Origin: Alkalinema sp. RU_4_3
GTDB taxonomy: Bacteria > Cyanobacteriota > Cyanobacteriia > Leptolyngbyales > Leptolyngbyaceae
Direction: 5' to 3'
NCBI GenBank assembly: GCA_012031975.1
Contig: JAAUSA010000014.1
Coordinates: 1 to 43,343 of the forward strand
Length of the DNA: 43,343 nt
The notes beneath the pieces are model-generated. The model was not told where the DNA came from. It saw only the letters and a program-made list of their open reading frames with translations, and ran no database searches. The position numbers and the translations under genes are program-made. Below are positions 655 to 34,112 of the stretch, one piece after another (position 1 is the stretch's first letter; the number at the start of each line of letters is the position of its first letter).

Positions 655-3227
655 CTAGACCGTCTTCACCTTCGCCTCCAGCGCCTCCAACCGACTCCGC
701 AGCAATCGATTCTCCTCCTTCATCTGGTCAAACTCCTGCCGCAGTTGATTCACCGCCACCGTCGAACCCGATCGAGACTGGACGATCGCTATTGCCTCCT
801 CGGCCATCCGCCGCGTTCGACCATCCGCCCCATCGCCCGTAAAGCCTTGCAGCAGGGCGATCGCCTTCGGGGTTTCCATGGATTCTAGGGCGACGATCGC
901 CGACACCTGGGACAGGAAGAAGCGTTCGCGGGACAGTTCCTTCAGGCGATTTAAGATCCGTTCTAGGTTGGGTTTCTCCTGGCCCGTGGAAATGCTCCCA
1001 AGCGATCGCACCGCCGCCAGTCGCAAAGGCTGCGCAACGCCGATTTCTGTATATTGCATCAGCAGATCCAACGCCGCCCTCGACGTTTTCATCCGACTCA
1101 GGGCACCGATCGCCCCGATGCGCAACACCTCATTCCAGCTCGATCGCTGCGCCAACGCCTCCGACAGAATACTCAAAACCTCTGACTCAGCCGGGGCTTC
1201 AGGCAAACCTGAGGCCGCAAATGTCCCGAGGTTTCGCAATGCTGCGGCTTCCACGAGATAGCTGGCGTCGCCGGACTGGGCGATCGATCGCACCGCTTCG
1301 TAACTCGCCTTGGTTTTGAAACTGGTGAGGGATTCTATGGTGACTCGACGGACCCGCGCCTCTGGATCTTTTAATCCCAACAGCAACGCATCAAAGGCTT
1401 GGTCGAGTTTGACCTGAGATAACGCCTGGGCCGCCTCTAGTCGAACGCCCCAGAATTTGTCGTTCTCCAAGGCCTCCTGCAATGCCTTAACCGCTTCCAA
1501 CCCACCCTTTTTGCCTAGGGCTCTGGCCGCATGAACCCGACTGACCGCCTCCGGATCGCCCAAGAGTTGTGCCTTCAGCTCTGGCACAGGATATTCCAGC
1601 GCCACTGATTTAAGGGTGTAGTTGCCGCGATCAAAACTAACAAACTCCGGTTTCTCAGCCAGCGGGAAGTAGAAAGATTGCTCCTTCTCATGGATGCGCA
1701 CAGTCAGGGTTTGAACAATTTCCTGATTGCGACCAAAGGCAATCGGTAGTTTCAAATCAAAGCAATCCGCATCCGATTCAGCCTGCGTTTGCGTCACCGT
1801 AACTTTGGCTAGCTTACTATCATATCCCAGCTATAAGCCACCTTATAATCGGGATGACCCCCCGATAGACATATTGATCGAACATCGGCGCAAGATTCTT
1901 ACCTGTCGCCTGCTCGATGGCCCGCAGCAGATCCACCGTCTCCACCACGCTATGGGCATGGTTGCGCAAAAACTGACCCATGGATTCCTGGAACAGATCA
2001 TCGCCCAATTCCGCCCGAACCATGTGATAGACACAGGAGCCCTTTTCGTAGATATGGCGATCGTACAGTTCGATCGCATCTCGGTAAACATTCGTCACCA
2101 AGGGCCGACGATAGCGCCCAGAATCCTCACTTTGGTATTCCTCCGCCTGACCCAACAAATAATAATGGGCCAAATCCTCGCCATACTCATGCTCCAGCCA
2201 GAGCACCTCCGCGTAGGAAGCCGCCCCCTCCTTCACCCAAGCATGGGACCAGTGCTTAATCACCGCCAAATCGCCAAACCACTGGTGGGCCAATTCATGG
2301 GCCACTAGGGTTTCGCTGCTGAGATTGTCGATCGCTGCCCGCTCATCTAACAAACAACGTGTCGTCAATAGCGTCGTGGAAGTATTCTCCATTCCACCAA
2401 AAATAAAATCATCCGCACAGACCTGCGCATACTTATCGTAGGCATAGTCATAGCGATAGGTCTTGCTGAAAAACTCCACCATTCTGGGGGTCTTGCCCAT
2501 GGTGAGTCTGGCCCGATCCTCCAGACCCGGCGTCACATAGTAGGTAATCGGCTTACCCCGCCATTCATCGCGCAGCTCCACATATTCCGCCACCGCCAGC
2601 GTCATTAGGTAGCTGGGATGCACCTGGTTTTGCTGCCAATGGTAGATCTTCCGATCGCCCAAGTCCTCCACACTCGCCAAGACCCCGTTGGAAACCGCGC
2701 TAAACGTTCCCGGCACCGTCACCCGAATTTCCGAGGTCGCCAACTGCCCTGGGTAGTCAAAACAAGGGAACCAATAGCGGGAATCCTCATCCTCGCCCTG
2801 GGTCCAGACCTGCACAGGCTTGTCGGGATAATGCTCCGTAGGTTTAATGAAATACATGCCGCGATCGGGCTGATTAATCCCATAATCAATGGCCACCTCC
2901 AGCCTGACCCCCTCGCTCGGTGGGCTGCAACAACTGCACCGTCAACCGATGGCCATCGTAGCTGTAGGGCTGGGGAACCGCCGCAATGGTCACCGCCTTA
3001 ATTTCCAGACTCACCGCATCCATCACAATGCTCGTAATTCCATCGCGCACGGGGCAAATTCTCGTGGTGCAGGTGCCCGAGGCGCGCTCATGGGGAATGT
3101 CTAGAACCAGATCCAGGGCAATATGCTCAACTTGACCTGGGCGATCGGGATTGTACTGCGGCTTTGCCCCCGGCAGTTCAAACGCTTTGTAACGACTATT
3201 CGACAGCACAGACCAGACCTGACTCAT
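655..3227 (-). CDS. pepN: M1 family aminopeptidase N with C-terminal HEAT-like repeats, frameshifted
   Basis: Zinc metallo-aminopeptidase removing N-terminal amino acids from peptides, cytoplasmic. Three overlapping frames together give one M1 protein of about 855 residues. The first (from 3227) has the N-terminal beta domain. The second has the substrate motif GGMEN, the zinc motif HELAH with the downstream Glu in WVKEGAASYAE, and ends at QYVYRG. The third (to 655) is an alpha-helical HEAT-repeat tail ending in a coiled coil. The breaks are a surplus base in the C-run at 2908-2912 (repair gives ERGVRLEVAIDYG), a missing base in the C-run at 1858-1863 (repair gives YRGGHPDYKVAYSWD), and one more missing base near 1820-1830. 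Start chosen at MSQVWSVLSN. Three lesions in one gene could mean a pseudogene, but two fall in homopolymers like the other breaks in this window. Upstream is a 320 bp gap with hairpins. Confidence 0.85.
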
Positions 3228-4477: not shown

Positions 4478-4627
4478 ATAAATCCCTCGGTAGATTGAGT
4501 AATCGGTTTTAAACCTAAGAAACACACCCTCTAAACAGAACATCCCTGGACTGCGGAACCGCAAGCCAGGAATGGTCAATTTTGAAGCTTAGATTGTACC
4601 GACTTTTACAGCGATTTGGATAGGGCG

Positions 4628-7167: not shown

Positions 7168-7785
7168 ATGTCCCAAATTGATGGGGACAGCAAATCGATG
7201 GCGATGTTTCGGAGCCAGTTTGTGGACAGCATGGAGATGTATGCCGATGCGGCGACCGTGGCGGCCTATCTTGATGCCCATCCCGAATGGTTTCGACGCT
7301 GTGCTGCGCCATTGATGACGGAGGCCCTGGGCGACAATGGCTATGTGGTGACGATCGGTCGCTACGGCAATTTCGGCTTTGAGCTGGAGCCGAAGGTGGG
7401 TCTACACCTGCTGCCCCAGGACCATGGGGTCTATCGGATTGAGACGCTGCCCGTACCGAGCTATGTGCCAGTGGGCTACGATGTGGACTTCAAGGCGGCC
7501 TTGGAGCTGGTGGAGCATGACCCGGATGCGGTGTCGGAGGCGATCGCGCCGGAAGCGAAGCATTTGACAAAGGTTGAGTGGACCTTGGATTTGACAGTGT
7601 CGATCCAGTTTCCGAAGTTTATTTTGGCTTTGCCCCAGGGATTGGTGGAGCGGACGGGGGAGGCGCTGCTGGAGAAGGTGGTGCGGCAGATTTCCCGGCG
7701 TCTGACCCGCAAGGTCCAGGAGGATTTCCATACGTCGCGTCAGTTGCCGACGCCGAAGCCGCCGAAGCGCTGGCTGTTTGGCTAG
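7168..7785 (+). CDS. DUF1997 family protein
   Basis: Cyanobacterial and plant-plastid DUF1997 protein of unknown function. About 205 residues from MSQIDGDSKS. Family-like features are FRSQFVDSMEMYADA at the N-terminus, YLDAHPEWFRRCAAPLM, IGRYGNFGFELEPKVGL and the basic tail PKPPKRWLFG. I chose the ATG at 7168 because AGGAGG lies 5 bases upstream. The frame stays open upstream and the ATGs at 7075 and 7135 are possible. It is followed after 118 bp by ndk on the same strand. Confidence 0.7.
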   Translation: MSQIDGDSKSMAMFRSQFVDSMEMYADAATVAAYLDAHPEWFRRCAAPLMTEALGDNGYVVTIGRYGNFGFELEPKVGLHLLPQDHGVYRIETLPVPSYVPVGYDVDFKAALELVEHDPDAVSEAIAPEAKHLTKVEWTLDLTVSIQFPKFILALPQGLVERTGEALLEKVVRQISRRLTRKVQEDFHTSRQLPTPKPPKRWLFG

Positions 7786-7903
7786 GGTTGGACCAGATGT
7801 AGAAACGCCCGCCCACAAACGTCAAATTTGTTTTACCCTGGTATCTGGAAAATTAGTTGTTCAGACTGAACACTAAACAGAAATTGCTTGGGAGCTAATT
7901 GCA

Positions 7904-8353
7904 GTGGAAAGAACTTTTGTGGCCATCAAGCCCGATGGCGTGCAGCGCAAGCTGGTGGGTGAGGTGATTCGTCGCTTTGAGGCGAAGGGATTTACGCTGG
8001 TTGGTTTGAAGCTGATCAATGTGTCTAAGGAATTGGCTGAGAAGCATTATGAAGCGCTGAACGACAAGCCTTTCTTCGGTGGCTTGATCGAGTTCATCAC
8101 CTCGGGTCCTGTGGTGGCCATGGTCTGGGAAGGCGACGGTGTGGTGGCCTCTGCCCGCAAGTTGATCGGTGCGACGAATCCTTTGGCTTCTGAGCCGGGG
8201 ACGATCCGGGGCGATCTGGCGGTGAATGTGGGCCGTAACGTGATCCATGGTTCGGATGCTGTGGATACGGCGAACCGGGAGATCGGGCTATGGTTTGCGG
8301 AGAGCGAACTGGCGGCTTGGACACCGACGAATATGAACTGGATCCACGAGTAA
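7904..8353 (+). CDS. ndk: Nucleoside diphosphate kinase
   Basis: Transfers the gamma phosphate between nucleoside tri- and diphosphates through a phospho-histidine; cytoplasmic. 149 residues, normal length, starting with GTG ([15 protein letters not shown]) after a GGGAG site. The active-site region [16 protein letters not shown] contains the catalytic His (His in IHGSD). The C-terminus NWIHE is typical. A strong intrinsic terminator follows 22 bases after the stop. Confidence 0.97.
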
Positions 8354-10624: not shown

Positions 10625-11392
10625 ATGGCGATTATTGCCCTGAAGGCTTGGTATTTACCCGAGTACGAACCGCTCAAACAAATCGAGAAGCGGCCCCATG
10701 ATCTGCGCCTGAGCAAAAATAGCCTGCTCAAGACGGCCATGCGGGCGGACTTCCTCGACGATCGCGAAGAGGTCAAGCAGGCCCTCTGGCTCCAGCGCTA
10801 CCTCGAAGGCGACTATGTGGAGTTTTACGTCGAGGGCAGTGGCACCTACGCGATCTCCAACATTGACCTGAGCAGCCATGAGATCTATTTCACCAAGGTA
10901 GATTCGCTCTCGAACCTGGAACCTGTGATCTTCCTCTGCTACCAGCAGGAGTACCCCGAGTCGAGCGAGCTGCTGCGGGAGGAGCTTAAATCGATCGTCG
11001 AGACCATCAATCGCAAGGCAAGGGTGCCCGTGACCCTCAAGGAGTCCAACCGCCTCTCCGACGGCCCCATTCGTCTGAACAGCTCCCTGATGCGCAGCAT
11101 TCGCCAGAGTTTGCTCTTCGTCGCCGATGGCACACCGATTCTGGAACTGCCCAATGTTAGTCCGCCCCAGTTGATTCCCAGTCCCAATGTCTGTGTCGAG
11201 GTGGGCTATGCCCTAGAAAGTAAGAGTCCAGAGCAGATTTTGCTGATGCAGATGGAGCGATCGGGCATGGCGGGTCAGTTCCCCTTCGATCTGCCCACCC
11301 AGAATCGACTGCTGTTTAAGGATGCCAACCAGTTGCACAAACTGTTGCCCAAGGCCGTTGAGGCCCAATTGAAGCGGTTCAATCTGGTGTAG
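10625..11392 (+). CDS. Conserved protein with C-terminal TIR/NDT-like nucleotide-binding signature
   Basis: 255 residues. No exact family recognised. The C-terminal half looks like the predicted nucleotide-binding TIR-like / nucleoside deoxyribosyltransferase-like fold: a beta strand SLLFVADGTPI (about 162-172), then PNVCVEVGYAL (187-197) matching the pattern N-x(3)-E-x-G with Glu192 in the place of the usual catalytic or nucleotide-contacting acid, then a strand QILLMQMERSG, then FPFDL (219-223), and a final Leu-rich helix. In known relatives this series reads PNV-x-x-ELG ... PFD. The N-terminal 120 residues match nothing I know. It is alone, with no defence-like neighbour, so a housekeeping role is as likely as an NAD-cleaving one. 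Starts at ATG 10625. Confidence 0.6.
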   Translation: MAIIALKAWYLPEYEPLKQIEKRPHDLRLSKNSLLKTAMRADFLDDREEVKQALWLQRYLEGDYVEFYVEGSGTYAISNIDLSSHEIYFTKVDSLSNLEPVIFLCYQQEYPESSELLREELKSIVETINRKARVPVTLKESNRLSDGPIRLNSSLMRSIRQSLLFVADGTPILELPNVSPPQLIPSPNVCVEVGYALESKSPEQILLMQMERSGMAGQFPFDLPTQNRLLFKDANQLHKLLPKAVEAQLKRFNLV

Positions 11393-11482
11393 TGACCCGC
11401 ACCCCCGTTCAAAAACTCGTGCCAATGGGCATTGTGTGAAGATAATTGGATCACCCGTGATTTATTTAGTGAGGTTGCGCCC

Positions 11483-11812
11483 ATGAGAAACTTTGTTCCA
11501 CCCCAGGAGACCGATTCGGGGGCGACGCCTACCGCTGGCGGCGCTGAGCGCCGCAGTCGCTACGCCAAGGTGCCGTCGGAATATGCGGTCCATCTGTTGA
11601 TTGAGGGGGGACACCGCGAGGAGGTGCGCTTCCAGAAGTTGGAGGAGTTTACCCAGTGGTACCAGACGGCGATCAAGCCGAAGGCGGAATCCAATGAGTT
11701 TGTCGGGGTGCCGATGAAGACGGCCCAGGGCGAGATGATGGTGGTGCGGCCCTCTAAAATCAATGGCATTCGGGTGGAACCGCTGTATACGACTAGCGTC
11801 GATCGGTATTAG
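11483..11812 (+). CDS. Small conserved cyanobacterial protein of unknown function
   Basis: 109 residues from MRNFVPPQET. A low-complexity start is followed by a compact domain: VPSEYAVHLLIEGGHREEV, LEEFTQWYQTAIKPKA, then EMMVVRPSKINGIRVEP and a C-terminal SVDRY. The pattern fits small cyanobacteria-only proteins I have seen described only as hypothetical. No membrane segment. It has its own start region 90 bp after the previous gene and is followed by two palindromic repeats. Confidence 0.6.
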   Translation: MRNFVPPQETDSGATPTAGGAERRSRYAKVPSEYAVHLLIEGGHREEVRFQKLEEFTQWYQTAIKPKAESNEFVGVPMKTAQGEMMVVRPSKINGIRVEPLYTTSVDRY

Positions 11813-12020: not shown

Positions 12021-13199
12021 ATGCTGAATCCCCTGATGCCCTTGATGATGGGTCTGTCCATCGCGATCGCCCAACCCACCATCACCCCCAGCCCTACGCC
12101 TACCCAAACGCCTGCCCCGACAAAACCCCGCTTCTCCCAAACCCTGACGGAGATCGAGGCTCCAGAAACAGCGGGATTGGATGACTTGCTGTACTCAGCC
12201 ACCGAGGGCGATCGCGCAGTCCTGGTCCGGGCGCTAGACAGCAGCCTCAAGTATTTGCAGAGCGATCGGGCGGCAAAAGTTTACCAGAGCTATCCGATTA
12301 AGGGCGTGACGCGATCGCGGGTTGAGAAGAGTCTGCGGCGGTTTCGGCAGTTAGTCCTGGCCTCCAAAACCCCAGAGGCGCTGCAAACAGCCGTACGCAA
12401 GGAGTTTAGCTTCTATCAGTCGGCGGGCAATGACGGCATGGGCACGGTGGGCTTCACGGGCTACTTTGAACCCGTACTCACCGCCAGTCGCAAGGCCACG
12501 GAGGACTATCGCTACCCCCTATACCGCCAACCCACCAGCTTCAACACCTGGAAAAAACCCCATCCGACTCGCCTAGAGCTAGAGGGGGCCAATGGATTGC
12601 AGGCCACCAAGGGGAAACTCAAGGGAGCGGAGTTGGTTTGGCTAAAAAGCCGCCTGGATGCTTTCTTGATCCAGGTGCAGGGATCCGCCCGGTTGCAGCT
12701 CACCGATGGGACGACGATGACCGTGGGGTTTGGGGGCAGTACGGACTATCCCTACGTCGGGATTGGCCGGGAGCTGGTGAAGGAGGGCAAGTTTAAGCTC
12801 GAAGAACTCACCCTGCCGAAGATCAAGCAGTATTTTGTCGAGAAACCCGAGGAACTCGATACTTACCTGCCCCGCAACAAGCGCTTCGTCTTTTTCCAAA
12901 ACACCAACAATCAGCCCCCCATCGGCAGCCTGGGCCAGCCTGTGCTGGCAAGGCGATCGATAGCCACCGACAAACGCCTCATGCCCCCCGGAGCAATCGC
13001 CTTGCTCCAAACGCAACTGCCCGATCGCAGTCTCACCCAACAATCCGTCAGCCGCTATGTGCTCGATCAGGACACGGGGAGCGCGATCATCGGGCCGGGC
13101 CGGGTGGATATTTTCATGGGATCCGGCGATCAGGCGGCGGCGGAAGCGGGCTTGGTCAATGCCACCGGGAATCTTTACTACCTGTTACTAAAACCCTAA
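12021..13199 (+). CDS. mltA: MltA family lytic murein transglycosylase
   Basis: Cleaves peptidoglycan glycan strands leaving 1,6-anhydromuramic ends; acts in the periplasm. 392 residues. A short hydrophobic N-terminus (MLNPLMPLMMGLSIAIAQ) is a likely signal peptide, followed by a Pro/Thr linker. MltA domain: GYFEPVLTASR, YRYPLYRQP, FLIQVQGSARL, TVGFGGSTDYPYVGIGREL. A C-terminal 3D domain has DKRLMPPGAIALL and the catalytic Asp region DTGSAIIGPGRVDIFMGSG. No lipobox Cys is present, unlike E. coli MltA. It precedes the copper amine oxidase-like cluster on the same strand with a 214 bp gap. Confidence 0.93.
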   Translation: MLNPLMPLMMGLSIAIAQPTITPSPTPTQTPAPTKPRFSQTLTEIEAPETAGLDDLLYSATEGDRAVLVRALDSSLKYLQSDRAAKVYQSYPIKGVTRSRVEKSLRRFRQLVLASKTPEALQTAVRKEFSFYQSAGNDGMGTVGFTGYFEPVLTASRKATEDYRYPLYRQPTSFNTWKKPHPTRLELEGANGLQATKGKLKGAELVWLKSRLDAFLIQVQGSARLQLTDGTTMTVGFGGSTDYPYVGIGRELVKEGKFKLEELTLPKIKQYFVEKPEELDTYLPRNKRFVFFQNTNNQPPIGSLGQPVLARRSIATDKRLMPPGAIALLQTQLPDRSLTQQSVSRYVLDQDTGSAIIGPGRVDIFMGSGDQAAAEAGLVNATGNLYYLLLKP

Positions 13200-13413: not shown

Positions 13414-14137
13414 ATGTTCAGGCAGTTTGTGCTAGGCGGGATGACGTCTGGCAGATCCGTTGGAGGGTGGACAGGGGGCTTAGCGATCGCCCTGCTGATC
13501 AGTGGTTCTGGCGCGGTGGTGCAGCCCGCCTTGGCCCAGATGGAAACAGAAACCCAGGCGGAGACCCGAGTCGATGTTCCGGCGGAGCCCAGCGCCCCGG
13601 TGCAGGTGGCCCAGGTCGGTATGGCGGGGGTAGAGGGGATTGGGCACAGTGAGGGGAATCGGATTATCCGCCGCCTTTCTGACCCAGGCTGACAATCGGA
13701 TCGCCAATGGCAATCAGCGGCTACGCGTTTTGCGGGTGCAGCCGATCGCCATCACCAAGGACCCGATTACTGGCGGCCTCGCCCCCCAGACCACCGTCCT
13801 GCTTTTGGTCTTCAACTACACCACGGGCAAGGCCCTGCGCTATCAGGTGAATCCCCAGACGGGCAAGGCCCTGAGTTCTGAGGTGCTGTCCGGCCAGCCT
13901 GCGGCCTCCGAGGAGGAAATCCTCGCGGCGGCGGAGGTGCTCTACCGCCAGCCAGACCTGGCCAGGGTTGCCCAGCAGGGGATCTTGGAGGATGGGTTTG
14001 CGGTGACGCCCCCACCGGGCCAGCCGACCACAGATCGCTATATCCAACTGCGCATTTTAAATAACAACCGAACCCAACTGCTGCGGACTGTGACTGTCAA
14101 TTTGACTCAAATCGCGATCGTCCCGACCACCGACTAA
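13414..14137 (+). CDS. Secreted protein with copper amine oxidase N3-like domain, frameshifted
   Basis: The first half (from ATG 13414 after GAGGG) gives a signal peptide (GLAIALLISGSGAVVQPALAQ) and reads into RIIRRLSDPG then stop. The second half continues in another frame. Removing one T from 13676-13678 joins them as RRLLTQADNRIANGNQRLRVL. The mature part carries VFNYTTGKALRYQVNPQTGK, then LSGQPAASEEEILAAAEVL and GILEDGFAVTPPPGQP, resembling the N3 domain of copper amine oxidases (a strand-rich part with Gly-Lys turns, then P-x-T-x-EE helix). It is a paralogue of the next gene and lies two genes upstream of a catalytic-domain homologue. The N3 assignment is inference; the paralogy is direct. 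Confidence 0.65.
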
Positions 14138-14192
14138 TACCCCACAATCAGGGCCATTCAGTTTTCATAACCTTTCAATAAAGGATCGATCA

Positions 14193-14858
14193 ATGCGTAA
14201 CTATTTTCATCGGCTAGGGCGGATCGCCTTAGTCACGATCGCGTTCGCCGCGATGTTTTGGCTGGGGCTGGGCGATCTTGCCCTAGCCCAGGAACGCCCC
14301 GATCCGGTGGTGGTTCCCAATCCGCGCCCGCCCATCGATCGGCCCGTCGGTCGAATTCGTTCCACCATTTCCGACGGAGAGCGGGCGACTGTGGGCGATC
14401 GCCTGCGCCGAGATGCCTCAGAACGCAATGAGCGGATTCGAGTGCTGGCGGTTAAGCCGAGTGTGGATACGGATAAGGAAGGCAATGGCGATCCCTTGAG
14501 CCGCGCCACCTCTGTGGTCTTCAACTACACCACGAACCGGGCCACAAGGCTCCATGTGGATTCCAGGAGTGGTGCGGTGGTGCGCCAGGAAACGCTGTCC
14601 GGGGTGCCCCAGAGTTCTCGGGAGGAGCGCGATCAGGCCATGACCGTGGTGAAGAATTTACCGGAGCTATCCAGTCTAATTACCCAGGAAAATGCGGCCC
14701 TAGAAGGTGGGTTTGTGGTGTCGCCGCCTGAGGGACGACCGATCGATCACCGCTATTTGCAGATCAAAATTCTGTCGAGCGATCGCCGCCGTCTACTGCG
14801 GTTTGTCACGGTGGATATGACTAGTAATTCGGTGGCTAATACTTTCCAACGCTTTTAA
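14193..14858 (+). CDS. Secreted copper amine oxidase N3-like domain protein, intact paralogue
   Basis: 221 residues with a signal peptide (IALVTIAFAAMFWLGLGDLALAQ). After a Pro/Arg-rich linker the domain matches the previous gene element by element: RIRVLAVKP, SVVFNYTTNRATRLHVDSRS, ETLSGVPQSSREERDQAM, ALEGGFVVSPPEGRP, HRYLQIKILSSDRRRLLRFV. Together they resemble copper amine oxidase N3 domains, here not fused to a catalytic domain. The RBS AAGGA lies 9 bases before the ATG. It is 55 bp after its paralogue and 17 bp before the catalytic-domain gene, so the three probably form an operon. Confidence 0.65.
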   Translation: MRNYFHRLGRIALVTIAFAAMFWLGLGDLALAQERPDPVVVPNPRPPIDRPVGRIRSTISDGERATVGDRLRRDASERNERIRVLAVKPSVDTDKEGNGDPLSRATSVVFNYTTNRATRLHVDSRSGAVVRQETLSGVPQSSREERDQAMTVVKNLPELSSLITQENAALEGGFVVSPPEGRPIDHRYLQIKILSSDRRRLLRFVTVDMTSNSVANTFQRF

Positions 14859-14875
14859 ATAATAGGCCTTTTATC

Positions 14876-15937
14876 ATGATCGCAAGTATTCAATTAGTGA
14901 TTGTCAAATTCCGCTGGCTGTTGGTCAGTCTGGGTTTGATGCTGGGTTTGGGATCGGTGTTGTTTTTCCATTCCCCGGCCAATAGTCAATTGGCGAGTAG
15001 TTGCGCGGCACCTTACAGCACCAATTGGCCCGCCAATAATCCTGTCTGGCAGATGTGCTGGAAGACAGCGGAGAATAGTTCTGGGGTGGATGGTTCGGGG
15101 CTGGAGTTGTTGTCGGTGTCCTATAAGGGACGACGGGTGTTTGCGCGGGGTCACCTGCCGATTTTGAATGTGAAGTATGATCCGGGCGGCTGTGGGGGTT
15201 CTGACCTATCCTACCGGGATTGGCAGAATGTGACGGTTCCCTATGAGGCGAATAATGTGATCCAGGCGAACTATGCGGAACCGACGACTCCGCCTGTCAC
15301 GGTATGCGATCACCCTGGGTTTGACCGAGGCACTTTTAAGGGGGTGGCGGTGGAGAAGCGGGCCGATCGCCTAGTCCTCACCACCCAAATGCAGGCGGGT
15401 TGGTATCGCTATATCCAGAAGTGGATGTTCTATGCCGATGGTCGAATTCAGCCCCAGCTAGGCTTTTCAGCGGTTCAGGACCCCTGCGTGGAGCGGCCCC
15501 ACAATCACCATGCCTATTGGCGTCTAGATTTTGACATTGAGGGTGCGGCGTCGGATGGGGTGGATGAACTCAATGGCGGGACTTGGAGTGCCTTGAATAC
15601 GGAGACCAAGCGGCCTAAGGCTTCGGGGCGTCGTTGGCGGGTGCTCGATCGCAATACCAATCGCGGCTATGAAATTATCCCGGCAGCGGGGGAGTTGCCT
15701 GCGGATAGCTGGGGGATTGCGGACCTTTGGGCAGTGCGCTACAGGGGCAATGAGCTGGATGATGGGGGCCGGGTGAATGCGCCCAATGGCGACCAGGCTC
15801 AGCTCAATAAGTTCGTGAATGGGGAGAGTTTGAATCGTCAAGATGCGGTGATCTGGTATCGATCGCAGTTCCGCCATGCGGGCGGGTTGGATTGCCATTT
15901 GATTGGGCCGACGCTGAAGCTAGTAGGTAACTGGTAG
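14876..15937 (+). CDS. Copper amine oxidase catalytic-domain protein, truncated and divergent
   Basis: Quinoprotein amine oxidase family (oxidative deamination of primary amines with copper and topaquinone), here 353 residues instead of the usual 600-750, with a signal peptide or membrane anchor (LLVSLGLMLGLGSVLFF) and no N-domains. Landmarks follow the family in order: WYRYIQKWMFYADGRI (176-191), with Tyr177 at the topaquinone position but Asn-Tyr-Asp changed to Trp-Tyr-Arg; HNHHAYWRLDFDIEG (209-223), with copper ligands His209 and His211; GYEIIPAAGELP; LWAVRYRG; and DAVIWYRSQFRHAGG (323-337), with His334 at the third copper site. Homology is firm by eye. Whether topaquinone forms is open, because its consensus neighbours are replaced. 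Confidence 0.8.
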   Translation: MIASIQLVIVKFRWLLVSLGLMLGLGSVLFFHSPANSQLASSCAAPYSTNWPANNPVWQMCWKTAENSSGVDGSGLELLSVSYKGRRVFARGHLPILNVKYDPGGCGGSDLSYRDWQNVTVPYEANNVIQANYAEPTTPPVTVCDHPGFDRGTFKGVAVEKRADRLVLTTQMQAGWYRYIQKWMFYADGRIQPQLGFSAVQDPCVERPHNHHAYWRLDFDIEGAASDGVDELNGGTWSALNTETKRPKASGRRWRVLDRNTNRGYEIIPAAGELPADSWGIADLWAVRYRGNELDDGGRVNAPNGDQAQLNKFVNGESLNRQDAVIWYRSQFRHAGGLDCHLIGPTLKLVGNW

Positions 15938-16034
15938 ATCGCGGCTGAGATGAAATCCCTGGGCGATCGGTCTGGGGGTTTTGTCGGATCGTTTTGCTAT
16001 GATGGAGAGGGCTAGAGTAAGGAGTCATTGAGTT

Positions 16035-16622
16035 ATGACGGTTGCGATCGATAGGCCATCTCAAATCAAAACGGACCAAGTTGTCACGATTGAGGGCGAT
16101 TGGGCAAAGTTTAAGCTGATTCAACAGGGTTGTGCGCAAAGTCGTGGTGTGCGGCTGTTTTACTTTAATGGGACGATCGAGATTCTTATGCCAGCGTTCC
16201 GTCATGAATTATTTAAGAGTGTCGTCGGCTTTCTGATTGAGACTTTCCTGTTTCACTATGAAATTGAATTTACGCCTACAGGTTCTGCAACGCAAGAAGT
16301 AGAAGGGGTTGTGGCGGCGGAAGCTGATGAGTCCTACGAAATTCAAGGATATCGGCTAGCCATAGAAATTGATTTCACCAATGGTTCTGTATCAAAGCTG
16401 GAGCGGTATCGGGCGCTTGGGACTAATGAGGTTTGGATATGGGAAGATGGTGTGCTGGATATCTATTGGCTCAAAACTGATGGCTACCAAAAGGCCGATC
16501 GCAGTCAAATTCCGGCTTTAGCGGCGATCGATCGGGCTTTCATGGCCCAATGTATTCTGATGGGAGAAACCTCCCGCATCCAAGCTGGGAAGAGGCTTTT
16601 GGGTGCAGAGCTTGGGGATTAG
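16035..16622 (+). CDS. Uma2 family (DUF820) putative restriction-like endonuclease
   Basis: PD-(D/E)xK-fold protein of a family greatly expanded in cyanobacteria; biological role unknown. 195 residues. Visible family blocks are GVRLFYFNGTIEILMP, the Asp/Glu-rich strand EADESYEIQ, and YRLAIEIDFTNGS, where Glu-x-Asp-Phe stands for the usual catalytic E-x-K/D region, followed by KLERYRALGTNEVWIWEDG. It starts at ATG 16035 after an AAGGAG site. It leads a short plus-strand run with the FMN reductase (42 bp gap). Confidence 0.9.
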   Translation: MTVAIDRPSQIKTDQVVTIEGDWAKFKLIQQGCAQSRGVRLFYFNGTIEILMPAFRHELFKSVVGFLIETFLFHYEIEFTPTGSATQEVEGVVAAEADESYEIQGYRLAIEIDFTNGSVSKLERYRALGTNEVWIWEDGVLDIYWLKTDGYQKADRSQIPALAAIDRAFMAQCILMGETSRIQAGKRLLGAELGD

Positions 16623-23157: not shown

Positions 23158-23169
23158 TGGGCGTACCAG
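23134..23169. repeat. 18-bp tandem duplication at the larC2/flippase junction
   Basis: TTTCATTGAGCGTACCAG (23134-23151) is followed directly by TTTCATTGGGCGTACCAG (23152-23169), with one difference. Read on the minus strand it doubles an ATGA stop-start junction, giving the flippase gene two in-frame ATGs six codons apart. Confidence 0.9.
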
Positions 23170-23597
23170 GCATCTATGGCCCTACGGTGGATTTCGCGCC
23201 AGGGGAGATTGTGCTGGCGGGCAATGGTGGCACAGTCTTCGTATTCGGGCTGGACATTCAGGAGTTCGCCATTGTGGTAGGCGAGTTTGATGGCGATCGG
23301 GCCTTGGGGCAGCGTGACCGTCTCAAAACGGCGATCGAGAACCGTACGCTCCTGCTGACTGCGGCGGATGCCGAGGGTGGTGGTTTCGGTAAAAATCAGG
23401 CGCTCGATGGGTGGGACTTGCTCAGGGAGGCAGATGACGGTGAGTAAGATCCCAGGGCGGGACTTCTTCATGCCGATCGCCTGGGTAAACACATCCAAGG
23501 CCCCCTGCTCAAACAGGCGATCGAACAGATAGCCGATCGCCTGGGGACTGAGATCGTCGATCTGGGTTTCGAGCACCGTGACGAGCGTGCTAGTCAT
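23154..23597 (-). CDS. larC2: LarC C-terminal part (LarC2), nickel insertion for nickel-pincer cofactor
   Basis: 147 residues matching the C-terminal domain of LarC (DUF111): [59 protein letters not shown] and the ending [19 protein letters not shown]. LarC inserts nickel into the pincer cofactor of lactate racemase and related enzymes. The start ATG overlaps the stop of the upstream part by 8 bases (ATGACTAG). In Lactobacillus plantarum LarC is made from larC1 and larC2 by a programmed frameshift; in many cyanobacteria it is one frame. See the paired entry. Confidence 0.88.
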
Positions 23598-24489
23598 GGC
23601 CGATCCAAAGGCGGAGGATGTTGGGAATCGGCAGGCTGATGGTGCCCGCCCCCAGGCCGATTTTTTCCAGGGTCATGGCCGGAGTCGGGCCGAAGTGGTG
23701 GGCGAGGGTGGTAACAATGGCGGCGCCCGTGGGGGTAACCAGTTCGCGATCGATGCCGTTGTGGTAGAGCTGCACCTGCCGCATCTCCAGGAGCTTGAGC
23801 ACCGCTGGCACAGGCACAGGCAACCGTCCATGCTGCGCCCAAACCGTTCCGCCGCCCGTGGGCAAAGGCCCGCAGTAGATCCGCTCAATCCCCAGCCATT
23901 CGAGGCCAAGACAGGTGCCCACAATATCGACGATCGCATCGATCGCCCCCACCTCATGGAAATGCACCTGCTCCGGCGCAATCCCATGGACTGCCCCCTC
24001 AGCCTTGGCCAGCGATCGAAATACTGCCAAACTCCAATCGGAGGCGCGATCGGGCAGGGCCGCACCCATGATCATCTGTTCAATTTCCGGCAGGTGGCGG
24101 GTGTGGCTGTGGGAATGGGGTTCGTGACCGTGGGAATGGGGTTCGTGGCTGTGGGAATGGGAATGGCTGTGGGAGTGAACTTCACTGTGGGAGTGGGTTT
24201 CACTGTGGGAATGCGCCTCGCTGTGGGAGTGGGTTTCACCGTGGGAGTGGCTGTGGGATTGGGTTTCGTGGCTGTGTTCATGGTCATGCAGGAGATCGAC
24301 ATGGACCTTGGTGGCCTGTTGGCCATTGTGCTGCATGGGTTCGGCCCGCAGGCTATATTCGCCTTTGATGCCGAGGCGATCGAGGTGGGTGACCAGATAG
24401 TCCAGGGGTAGCCCGATATCCACGAGGGCACCCAGACACATGTCCCCAGCAATTCCCGTCGGGCAGTCGAAATAGGCCACTTTTGCCAT
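23590..24489 (-). CDS. larC1: LarC N-terminal part (LarC1) with His-rich metal-binding stretch
   Basis: 299 residues with the LarC N-terminal domain: [65 protein letters not shown] and [12 protein letters not shown]. Between residues about 67 and 130 lies a His-Ser/Glu repeat tract with over 25 His (units [11 protein letters not shown]), fitting a nickel store or sensor; it is much longer than needed for catalysis. The frame ends at RLWIGHD after the start of the second part. No larA, larB or larE lies in the window, so the client enzyme is elsewhere. Confidence 0.9.
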
Positions 24490-32114: not shown

Positions 32115-34112
32115 TTACGTCGCCGATAGATAGGTGTAACCGCTCAGACAATTTTCGTAGCATTGCAGCAGCATTTGAGATTCCTGGAGGCTCATGGTTT
32201 TGGCTTCGATCGATTTCTCAGTTTTTTTCCGAATGCTCTCGATCAGATCGTCATAGCCATATTGCACATAGCTCAGGACCTCGCGCATCGTGTCCCCCCG
32301 GACCACATGCTCAATGGCATAGCCCTTAGGCGTCAGCGCAATATGCACCACGTTCGTGTCGCCAAACAGATTATGCAAATTCCCCATAATCTCCTGGTAG
32401 GCTCCATTGAGGAACATGCCCAAACAATAGGGCTCTCCCGGCTCGAAGGCATGGAGTTCTAGTACTGATTTGACATCGCGCAGATCAATGAATTGGTCGA
32501 TCTTGCCATCACTGTCACAGGTCAAATCCGCCAGGGTCGCCCGCTTGGTTGGCTCCTCATTTAAGCGGTGAATGGGCATAATTGGGAAGAGTTGATCGAT
32601 CGCCCAACTATCCGGCGCCGATTGAAACACAGAAAGGTTGACATAATACATCGCCGCCATAATCTTCTCTAATTCTTCAAGCTCCTCCGGCACTGCATCG
32701 AGGCCCATGGTAATCGTGCGGATCCTTTGACAGCAGGCCCAATAGATCTGTTCCGCCCTAGCCCGCTCCGGCAAACTTAAATAACCAAAGGTAAACAAAC
32801 TCAACGCTTCATCTTTAAATTGTGTTGCATCGTTATACATTTCCTGAATATTGTCCGGCCCGATCGATTCATAGGTCTCATGCAGATTGCGAATCACCGT
32901 GGGGGCATCGGACTCCAAGGGTTCGAGCGTGGGATTAGCCACTTCACTGGTGCCGAGGACATCAAAGATCAGCACCGACTGGTGGGAGGAAATGGCTCGA
33001 CCGCTTTCGCTCACCAGCGTCGGCACGTTGATTTTGGCCTTGGTGCAGGCATCCTTGACCGCCGCGACGACATCATTGGCGTAGTTTTGGGTGTTGTAAT
33101 TTTTCGAGGCGTGGAAATTACTGCGGGATCCGTCGTAGTCTACGCCTAGGCCACCCCCCACATCTAAGTAGTGCATATTGGCACCGAGACGGGCCAACTC
33201 CGTATAGATCTGCCCGGCCTCCCGCAGCGCATCCTTGAGTACGCTAATGGCAGAGATTTGGGATCCAATATGGAAATGCAAGAGTTGCACACAATCTAAA
33301 AGGTTGGCGGCCCGTAATTTCTCGACCCCCTGCAAAATCTCGGGGATAGTTAAGCCAAACTTGGCCCGATCGCCCGCCGAATCCCCCCAGCGCCCAATCC
33401 CCTTGGCACTGAGCTTGGCCCGTACCCCGACCACCGGACGGATCCCCAAGCGCTGGTGGGCCTCGATCACCAGATCAACTTCCTCGGGCTGCTCCAACAC
33501 AATGATCACTGTCTGACCCAATTGCTGGCCCAGCATCGCGGCCTCTATATATTCGCGATCTTTATAGCCGTTGCAGATCAGTAAGGCCCCTGGGGTCTGC
33601 AACGAGGCCATGGCGATCATCAGCTCTGGCTTCGAGCCCGCCTCCAGCCCAAACTGGTAGGGCTGGCCAAACCGGACTAGATTTTCCACCAGATGCCGCT
33701 GCTGGTTACACTTGACCGGAAAGACGCCTTTGTAACTGCCACCATAGCTATACCGCACGATCGCCTTGGCAAAGGCCGCATTCAGGCGTTCCATCCGATC
33801 CTCAAGAATGTCGGAGAAGCGGATTAATAGGGGCAACTCTAAATTTCTCTGCTGGAGACCTTGAACCAGTTCGTAGAGATCAATAGATCCGCCCCTCGGT
33901 CCCTTAGGCGAAACCGTCACCCGCCCCGCATCGTTAATGGCAAAATAGGGGTCCCCCCAGCCCTGGATCCGGTAGAGTTCCTCGCTCTGTTCGATCGACC
34001 AGGGCATTGGGGCCGGCGGTGCCGTTTTTTTGGATTGGGTAGCGGCTTCGGCTTGAGGGGTGATCTCAAGGGACAGCGCAGCTTCTAGATCGGCACTCTT
34101 TGTGGGGGACAT
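32115..34112 (-). CDS. speA: Biosynthetic arginine decarboxylase
   Basis: PLP enzyme converting arginine to agmatine, the first step of polyamine synthesis in cyanobacteria; cytoplasmic. 665 residues, full length. The PLP-binding Lys is in GVFPVKCNQQRHLVENLV. Other blocks are LICNGYKDREYIEAAM, HFHIGSQISAISVLKDAL, DVGGGLGVDYDGS and VSESGRAISSHQSVL. Both frame and length are intact. Start ATG 34112, giving MSPTKSADLE. Its own promoter lies in the 443 bp shared with pipX. The DUF2079 gene follows by 4 bp. Confidence 0.96.
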   Translation of the reverse strand: MSPTKSADLEAALSLEITPQAEAATQSKKTAPPAPMPWSIEQSEELYRIQGWGDPYFAINDAGRVTVSPKGPRGGSIDLYELVQGLQQRNLELPLLIRFSDILEDRMERLNAAFAKAIVRYSYGGSYKGVFPVKCNQQRHLVENLVRFGQPYQFGLEAGSKPELMIAMASLQTPGALLICNGYKDREYIEAAMLGQQLGQTVIIVLEQPEEVDLVIEAHQRLGIRPVVGVRAKLSAKGIGRWGDSAGDRAKFGLTIPEILQGVEKLRAANLLDCVQLLHFHIGSQISAISVLKDALREAGQIYTELARLGANMHYLDVGGGLGVDYDGSRSNFHASKNYNTQNYANDVVAAVKDACTKAKINVPTLVSESGRAISSHQSVLIFDVLGTSEVANPTLEPLESDAPTVIRNLHETYESIGPDNIQEMYNDATQFKDEALSLFTFGYLSLPERARAEQIYWACCQRIRTITMGLDAVPEELEELEKIMAAMYYVNLSVFQSAPDSWAIDQLFPIMPIHRLNEEPTKRATLADLTCDSDGKIDQFIDLRDVKSVLELHAFEPGEPYCLGMFLNGAYQEIMGNLHNLFGDTNVVHIALTPKGYAIEHVVRGDTMREVLSYVQYGYDDLIESIRKKTEKSIEAKTMSLQESQMLLQCYENCLSGYTYLSAT

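What the first reader, a model, noticed from the sequence alone, without database searches (positions are those of the whole stretch)
13414..15937. A copper amine oxidase in pieces: two stand-alone N3-like proteins next to a bare catalytic domain
Seen: three adjacent secreted proteins with gaps of 55 and 17 bp. The third aligns in order with the copper amine oxidase catalytic domain, with His209, His211 and His334 in the copper positions and Tyr177 in the topaquinone position, but the usual N-Y-D/E consensus is W-Y-R. The two preceding paralogues each show a short domain that looks like the family's N3 domain. Known: normal enzymes are single polypeptides with N2-N3-catalytic order. Inference: a split, possibly heteromeric amine oxidase, or an N3-only binding/chaperone pair serving a redox-inactive relative.
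Basis: partly seen in the sequence, partly recalled or inferred. Interest (0 to 1): 0.72.

Follow-up and report, generated by a model that had tools for sequence, protein, structure and literature searches.

The report
Copper amine oxidase split into subunits
A cyanobacterium carries a distant relative of copper amine oxidase, an enzyme otherwise made as one chain, cut into separate proteins, and the same cut (or its joined-up form) turns up in unrelated bacteria, so it looks like a real but untested multi-part version of the enzyme.

Summary
The observation largely holds. The third protein (14876-15937) is a bare copper amine oxidase (CAO) catalytic domain: Pfam PF01179, 51.5 bits against a cut-off of 27. 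Tyr177, His209, His211 and His334 align with the cofactor and copper positions; the flank is W-Y-R. The two preceding proteins are not N3 alone: model, fold search and profile comparison show a compact N2-N3 pair. One correction: the first paralogue is not one open frame; the frame changes between 13634 and 13692. Two conserved genes of this window are frame-broken as well, so an assembly indel is the likeliest cause. The trio was found in none of the other 385 cyanobacterial genomes sampled. Relatives elsewhere show the layout is real: N2-N3 and catalytic genes overlap in a Lysobacterales metagenome bin and in Microvirga, and the two parts are fused in Variovorax and Nonomuraea. All five cores form one clade apart from ordinary CAOs. 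Neighbours of two relatives (pentaheme cytochrome; tyrosinase plus galactose-oxidase-like) suggest redox function. Best reading: a CAO-like quinoenzyme whose N2-N3 subunit acts in trans. Assembly, cofactor and substrate are inferred. New variant of a known kind.

The parts
13414..13692 (+). 5' part of first paralogue: signal peptide and linker, ends in a stop in this frame
   Evidence: frame stops at 13692; codon usage favours this frame at 13474-13653; signal peptide (..PALAQ) by inspection
13634..13692 (+). interval that must hold the frame break of the first paralogue
   Evidence: stop of the downstream frame at 13631-13633, stop of the upstream frame at 13692, codon usage switch
13640..14137 (+). 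first N2-N3 module (P0009), frame shifted relative to its signal peptide
   Evidence: 40% identical to P0008 over 141 columns; found by the P0008 search of the genome
14193..14858 (+). second N2-N3 protein (P0008, 221 aa): signal peptide, linker, N2-N3 module
   Evidence: AlphaFold model pLDDT 77.5, Foldseek and VIA matches to CAO N2-N3, hhalign
14876..15937 (+). CAO-like catalytic (D4) protein, 353 aa, own signal-peptide-like N-terminus
   Evidence: PF01179 51.5 bits; hhalign 98.9%; profile search of PDB sequences E 7.2e-10
15404..15406 (+). Tyr177 codon, topaquinone position (flank Gly-Trp-Tyr-Arg)
   Evidence: alignments; numbering; codon read
15500..15508 (+). His209-Asn-His211, first two copper ligand positions
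   Evidence: invariant in 5 of 5 members; numbering
15875..15877 (+). His334 codon, third copper ligand position
   Evidence: kept in 4 of 5 members, Asp in the Lysobacterales protein; numbering

Best explanation
The trio encodes a divergent copper amine oxidase-like enzyme built from separate chains. A secreted D4-type catalytic subunit (353 aa) carries the copper triad His209/His211/His334 and a Tyr177 that would self-convert to topaquinone or a related quinone. One or two secreted N2-N3 subunits (tandem cystatin-like domains) bind it in trans and supply the part of the amine channel that N3 supplies in ordinary CAOs. Shown by computation: homology of both parts, separate genes, recurrence of split and fused forms. 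Inferred: export, complex formation, copper and quinone, amine oxidation in the periplasm or outside the cell.
For: PF01179 above cut-off and hhalign 98.9% of five divergent cores against 31 ordinary CAO catalytic domains (row count). N2-N3: the model folds as two helix-plus-four-strand units; of 50 VIA rows shown, 46 are CAOs and 45 of these align over model residues 1-164 to the N2-N3 stretch, e.g. 14-193 of Arthrobacter CAO, best Z 9.4 (1ekm_A, 161 residues, rmsd 11.9); 49 of 50 Foldseek rows shown are CAOs, best E 1.2e-5; hhalign 88%, E 2.8e-6, collinear over 118 columns, score 44.8 against a maximum of 17.8 in 60 column shuffles. Split and fused forms: Lysobacterales pair overlapping by TTGA, Microvirga pair overlapping by 29 bp if its ATG at 4527 is used, fused Variovorax and Nonomuraea. 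Tyr and first two His kept in 5 of 5 members; Tyr101, aligned with the strictly conserved TPQ-bonding Tyr, also in 5 of 5. The five cores are one clade, support 99/99.
Against: The T-x-x-N-Y-D/E consensus is missing (Q-A-G-W-Y-R). The catalytic Asp cannot be placed surely: D115 is conserved but aligns three columns off the classical base. D4 is short: Tyr to first His 32 residues against 48-58 in the 19 usable rows of 25, second to third His 123 against 154-159 in 25 of 25 (25 of 31 ordinary CAOs could be placed), so the dimer arms may be gone. The Lysobacterales relative has Asp for the third His. The D4 model is poor (pLDDT 46.2) and galactose mutarotases come close (Z 9.4 against 11.2). The six N-modules match N2 alone at 53% and N3 alone at only 13%; the window pair matches the fused and the other split N-modules weakly (4.4% and 0.3%). 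The first paralogue is frame-broken.
Confidence: 0.52

Rival explanations
1. A catalytically dead relative: the D4-like protein is a copper-binding or structural exported protein, and the N2-N3 proteins are its chaperones or partners.
For: Missing N and D/E around the Tyr; shortened D4; third His replaced by Asp in one of five members; a glycine-zipper-like insert, below Pfam's cut-off, in the Microvirga D4.
Against: Tyr and first two His kept in 5 of 5 members from three phyla, the four relatives being 26-42% identical to the window core; redox genes beside two relatives; an Asn-to-Ala mutant CAO still makes TPQ (PMC9491219, passages).
Confidence: 0.25
2. A quinoenzyme that is not an oxidase: electrons from the Tyr-derived cofactor pass to a cytochrome or other partner, as in amine dehydrogenases, or the substrate is not a free amine.
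For: In the Lysobacterales bin a protein with five CxxCH motifs overlaps the N2-N3 gene by ATGA, which overlaps the D4 gene by TTGA. In Variovorax the fused protein lies between a tyrosinase-domain protein and a galactose/glyoxal-oxidase-like protein.
Against: No cytochrome-like Pfam hit among the 20 window proteins scanned around the trio; the neighbours differ in every relative, so context may not transfer.
Confidence: 0.15
3. A decaying or artefactual locus: a once single-chain gene broken by mutation or assembly error.
For: The first paralogue has a frame break; two conserved genes of the window are broken too; no other cyanobacterium sampled has the trio.
Against: P0008 and the D4 gene are intact, each starting with its own signal-peptide-like stretch (by inspection), which a broken fusion would not give; the same division occurs in Lysobacterales and Microvirga.
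Confidence: 0.08

Closest known systems
Copper amine oxidase (primary-amine oxidase, PF01179 with PF02727 and PF02728; e.g. Arthrobacter globiformis and E. coli enzymes)
   Same: Catalytic D4 domain homology; Cu-binding His and precursor Tyr positions; N2-N3 domains in the same order upstream
   Different: Separate polypeptides; W-Y-R instead of N-Y-D/E; D4 about 80 residues shorter; two N2-N3 copies; no PF02727/PF02728 hit by sequence
Fused divergent CAO-like proteins of Variovorax sp. WDL1 (WP_162487223.1, annotated hypothetical) and Nonomuraea gerenzanensis
   Same: Same W-Y-R motif and HxHH-x-YWRLDFD motif; 42% and 35% identical to the window core
   Different: One chain; no signal peptide evident by inspection
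Split pairs in Lysobacterales bin Bin_3 (JABAQR010000056.1) and Microvirga ossetica plasmid NZ_CP016619.1
   Same: Separate N2-N3 gene directly before and overlapping a D4 gene
   Different: One N2-N3 gene directly upstream, not two; W-Y-F and A-Y-H flanks; Asp for the third His in Lysobacterales; glycine-zipper-like insert and C-terminal repeats in Microvirga

Membership tests
Copper amine oxidase (EC 1.4.3.21 type) | PF01179 catalytic domain above the curated cut-off | tested here: met
   51.5 bits against 27, E 9.4e-14
Copper amine oxidase (EC 1.4.3.21 type) | Three copper-ligand His and a precursor Tyr at the family positions | tested here: met
   Y177, H209, H211, H334 in alignments
[quoted passage not shown]
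   The window reads Gln-Ala-Gly-Trp-Tyr-Arg
Copper amine oxidase (EC 1.4.3.21 type) | N2, N3 and catalytic domain on one polypeptide | tested here: not met
   Separate genes 13640-14137, 14193-14858, 14876-15937
Copper amine oxidase (EC 1.4.3.21 type) | N2 and N3 domains recognised as PF02727 and PF02728 | tested here: not met
   No hit for any of the 6 N-modules; the same library finds both in an ordinary CAO (P0012); remote homology and fold do match N2-N3
Copper amine oxidase (EC 1.4.3.21 type) | Catalytic-base aspartate | tested here: inconclusive
   D115 conserved in the five members, but the alignments put it three columns from the classical base
Copper amine oxidase (EC 1.4.3.21 type) | Homodimer held by beta-hairpin arms | tested here: inconclusive
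   Both inter-motif stretches are shortened; D4 model too poor to tell
Copper amine oxidase (EC 1.4.3.21 type) | Topaquinone formation and amine oxidation with peroxide release | not testable with these tools
   Needs purified protein

The most novel reading that the evidence does not exclude
A new branch of copper quinoenzymes in which the substrate-channel module (N2-N3) is a separate, exchangeable subunit: the two window paralogues would give one catalytic subunit two specificities. In some lineages the branch hands electrons to a multiheme cytochrome rather than to oxygen, with a cofactor set by a Trp-Tyr-Arg motif.
Probability: 0.15. Interest if true: 0.85.

Novelty: new variant of a known kind. 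Interest (0 to 1): 0.6.

Why it matters
The structurally characterised CAOs in the review consulted here are homodimers whose subunit carries the N2-N3 (D2-D3) and D4 domains along one sequence (PMC3382800, passages). A natural split form with fused counterparts would let the role of N2-N3 be tested by simply leaving it out or swapping it, and the W-Y-R family asks directly how much of the consensus is needed to build a topaquinone. The Variovorax and Microvirga members are annotated only as hypothetical proteins.

Tried and rejected
N3-only reading: rejected; the model spans N2 and N3. Single units of this fold are common: YpmB gives Z 7.7 over 60 residues (rmsd 1.8) and YpeB Z 6.7 over 67 (rmsd 3.6). 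The tandem order, profile match and gene fusion carry the CAO claim. Whole-model rmsd of about 11 A means the relative placing of the two units is not matched.

Contamination: rejected; the adjacent mltA gene is in 42 of 42 genomes of the order, at 56-67% identity in the 41 others. Of 11 relative loci around mltA, 9 also hold the upstream gene 11432-11812 and 2 the gene 10625-11392; none shows the trio or the genes after it, but these loci reach only about 1.5 kb past mltA.

Pseudogene for the first paralogue: less likely than an assembly indel. The M1 peptidase of the closest relative aligns to this window in three consecutive frames and the nickel-insertion protein of another in two. Own open frames are 373 and 309 aa, against 846-928 aa in 34 of 39 and 434-582 aa in 35 of 39 matched other genomes. 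Not settled without reads.

No relatives in viral contigs or phages, and none for P0008 in plasmids. The genome-contig scan uses exact short peptides and found 1 relative among 18 candidates, so the family's true spread is unknown. Literature searches for a split, heteromeric or domain-only CAO showed capped listings of titles and abstract openings; none that I saw describes a naturally split CAO. Two listed items come near: an engineered Arthrobacter heterodimer (PMC4497604) and a shorter human splice variant (PMC3548902), both seen only in the listing. The library holds open-licence papers only. 'The tree of life of copper-containing amine oxidases' (PMC12058724) was seen only as term passages; it had no hit for cyanobacteria, truncated or prokaryote. 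PMC6345859 was seen as passages and gave nothing on split forms.

Promoter and terminator scan: one promoter-like site (inside the D4 gene; 1.5 expected), none upstream of the trio; 8 terminator-like sites against 2.6 expected, one just after the D4 gene (15949-15985). Consensus matches only.

Dropped rows: 6 of 25 spacing values of 79 are an artefact of my motif search, which stopped at an earlier HY(D/E)Y; L011 was dropped from the ordinary CAO set because the script took a wrong frame; 11 of 31 ordinary CAOs went into the tree.

Full report
What is there. On the + strand between an mltA gene (12021-13199) and a 195 aa protein gene (16035-16622) lie three genes. The third, 14876-15937, gives a 353 aa protein with a hydrophobic N-terminus of signal-peptide type (by inspection) and a catalytic domain of the copper amine oxidase (CAO) family: PF01179, E 9.4e-14, 51.5 bits against a curated cut-off of 27. 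Alone it barely matches solved CAO sequences (best E 0.15). A profile of it with four relatives matches them at E 7.2e-10 and puts the Tyr, the His pair and the last His on those of the E. coli enzyme. The genome has no other PF01179 match.

The first gene is not one frame. From ATG 13414 the frame stops at 13692; the domain frame opens after a stop at 13631-13633 and runs to 14137. Codon usage built from long frames of the window favours the first frame at 13474-13653 and the second from 13654 on. The same window holds other frame breaks. The M1 peptidase of one relative (L058) aligns to it in three consecutive frames, and the nickel-insertion protein of another (L060) in two. Their open frames here are 373 and 309 aa, against 846-928 aa in 34 of 39 and 434-582 aa in 35 of 39 matched other genomes of the order. 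An indel error in the assembly is therefore the likeliest cause in the first paralogue too, but a real frameshift is not excluded.

The two upstream proteins. P0008 and P0009 are 40% identical over 141 columns. None of the six N-modules (these two and four from relatives) reaches a Pfam CAO N2 or N3 model, and a profile of them finds no CAO in the PDB sequences. Profile-profile comparison against N2-N3 of 31 ordinary CAOs gives 88%, E 2.8e-6, score 44.8, aligned in order from late N2 through N3; against N2 alone 53%, against N3 alone 13%. Sixty column shuffles reach at most 17.8, the reversed profile 11.7, and 60 block shuffles, which keep real local pieces, at most 39.6. The window pair alone scores 31.7 (44%); column shuffles reach 19.8, and 2 of 60 block shuffles reach or pass it. 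Against the catalytic domain the six-member profile gives 0.07%. Direct comparison of the window pair with the fused and the other split N-modules is weak (4.4% and 0.3%), so the link runs through the CAO profile, the fold and the gene layout. A template-free model from three sequences (pLDDT 77.5) shows two units of helix plus four strands. Of the 50 Foldseek rows shown, 49 are CAOs, best E 1.2e-5. Of the 50 VIA rows shown, 46 are CAOs; the best is Z 9.4 to the Hansenula enzyme, residues 27-210 (161 residues, rmsd 11.9), and the Arthrobacter enzyme matches over 14-193. The high rmsd says that the hinge between the two units differs or is badly predicted.

Where else it occurs. By sequence the catalytic protein has no match in the other genomes of a phylum sample (1 of 386, its own) or of a set of relatives (1 of 58, its own). 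P0008 gives 1 of 386, its own. The wider core profile matches 41 of 386 and 3 of 42 in the order. Of the 40 others in the phylum sample 38 have their best match in open frames of 631-843 aa, the size of ordinary single-chain CAOs, and two in frames of 224 and 132 aa. The N-module profile gives 1 of 42, its own. Outside cyanobacteria, relatives came from one scan of bacterial genomes and from plasmid records (5 of 72,556 match). Two of those five are copies in one Variovorax strain, and one, in Rhodococcus, is annotated as a primary-amine oxidase. A Leisingera hit is an ordinary CAO with N2, N3 and catalytic domains.

Split and fused. In the Lysobacterales bin (L002) a lipoprotein-like N-module (7363-7953; lipobox by inspection) overlaps the catalytic gene (from TTG 7950) by TTGA and is itself overlapped (ATGA) by a frame with five CxxCH motifs. 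In Microvirga ossetica an N-module (ends 4555 in L006) overlaps the catalytic frame, whose likely ATG is at 4527. In Variovorax sp. WDL1 and Nonomuraea gerenzanensis N-module and core are one chain of 529 and 518 aa. PF01179 passes its cut-off in Variovorax (51.1 bits) and Microvirga (49.6), and falls below it in Nonomuraea (23.2) and Lysobacterales (20.7). A tree of 16 rows puts the five divergent cores in one clade (99/99) against 11 ordinary CAOs; Microvirga and Lysobacterales are long branches. The window has two N-modules; each relative shows one directly before or joined to the core. Because the window's catalytic protein begins with its own export-type stretch, the split does not look like an accident of a broken fusion.

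Active site. All five cores keep the Tyr, both His of the pair, and a Tyr aligned with the one that bonds TPQ O4 (Tyr101; compare Tyr284 of the Arthrobacter enzyme and Tyr305 of the Hansenula one, PMC9491219 and PMC3382800, passages). Four of five keep the last His. The flank is W-Y-R in three, W-Y-F and A-Y-H in the others. The Asn-to-Ala mutant of the Arthrobacter enzyme still makes TPQ, at about 1/180 of the rate, with kcat about 1/160 (PMC9491219, passages). So a changed flank weakens, but does not rule out, a quinone. An Asp at 115 is conserved, but its equivalence with the catalytic base is uncertain. Stretches between the motifs are shortened; the dimer arms (PMC3382800, passages) may be lost. 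Five of the six Cys are shared with the Lysobacterales protein, which fits disulfides outside the cytoplasm (inference). The D4 model itself is poor (pLDDT 46.2); its best match is still a CAO (Z 11.2, 251 residues, rmsd 4.4), with galactose mutarotases at Z 9.4.

How it probably works. In ordinary CAOs the amine channel includes residues 155 and 156 of the Hansenula enzyme (PMC3382800, passages), inside the stretch that the N2-N3 model matches (27-210). A separate N2-N3 subunit would therefore lie at the substrate entrance. I propose that the exported N2-N3 and D4 proteins assemble outside the cytoplasm, that Cu(II) and oxygen turn Tyr177 into a quinone, and that the complex oxidises an amine. 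Steps shown: gene layout, homology, recurrence. Steps inferred: export, assembly, cofactor, substrate. Contexts in two relatives are redox-rich but different: a pentaheme cytochrome in Lysobacterales, a tyrosinase-domain protein and a galactose-oxidase-like protein in Variovorax. The window's own neighbours (20 proteins scanned) tell nothing clear; an arginine decarboxylase gene lies about 16 kb away.

Verdict. Real, and more interesting than a lone oddity, because split and fused forms share one clade across three phyla. It is a divergent branch of the CAO superfamily, not filed as a canonical CAO, since the consensus motif and the single-chain layout were tested and not met.

Noticed in passing
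L002 5456-7366: Protein with five CxxCH motifs (Cytochrome_C7, 29 bits) overlapping the Lysobacterales N2-N3 gene by ATGA: a possible redox partner.
   Followed up: partly
L004 2359-4428 and 7317-9122: Variovorax WDL1: tyrosinase domain with FG-GAP repeats before, and galactose/glyoxal-oxidase-like protein after, the fused CAO-like gene: a cluster of three probable copper oxidases; a CusA/CzcA-type efflux system lies about 14 kb further on.
   Followed up: partly
L006 4527-6596: The Microvirga catalytic protein has a glycine-zipper-like insert inside the domain and C-terminal repeats; its annotated start (4776) cuts off the first strands of the domain.
   Followed up: partly
window 664-3203 and 23160-24489: M1 peptidase and nickel-insertion genes are broken by frame changes (three and two frames), while most relatives have them as one frame: indel errors in this assembly are likely.
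   Followed up: yes
window 32115-34112: Arginine decarboxylase (polyamine synthesis) about 16 kb from the trio; no link shown.
   Followed up: no
L010 4221-6137: Leisingera plasmid CAO with His in place of the Asn before the TPQ Tyr (A-H-Y-D), otherwise ordinary N2-N3-D4.
   Followed up: no
G097:C211:38481-38825 and G385:C1:4377334-4377513: Short open frames (224 and 132 aa) with CAO catalytic matches in two other cyanobacteria: fragments, pseudogenes or assembly breaks.
   Followed up: no
NZ_LT559118.1: The Nonomuraea 'plasmid' record is 11.85 Mb, so it is probably a chromosome mislabelled as a plasmid.
   Followed up: no
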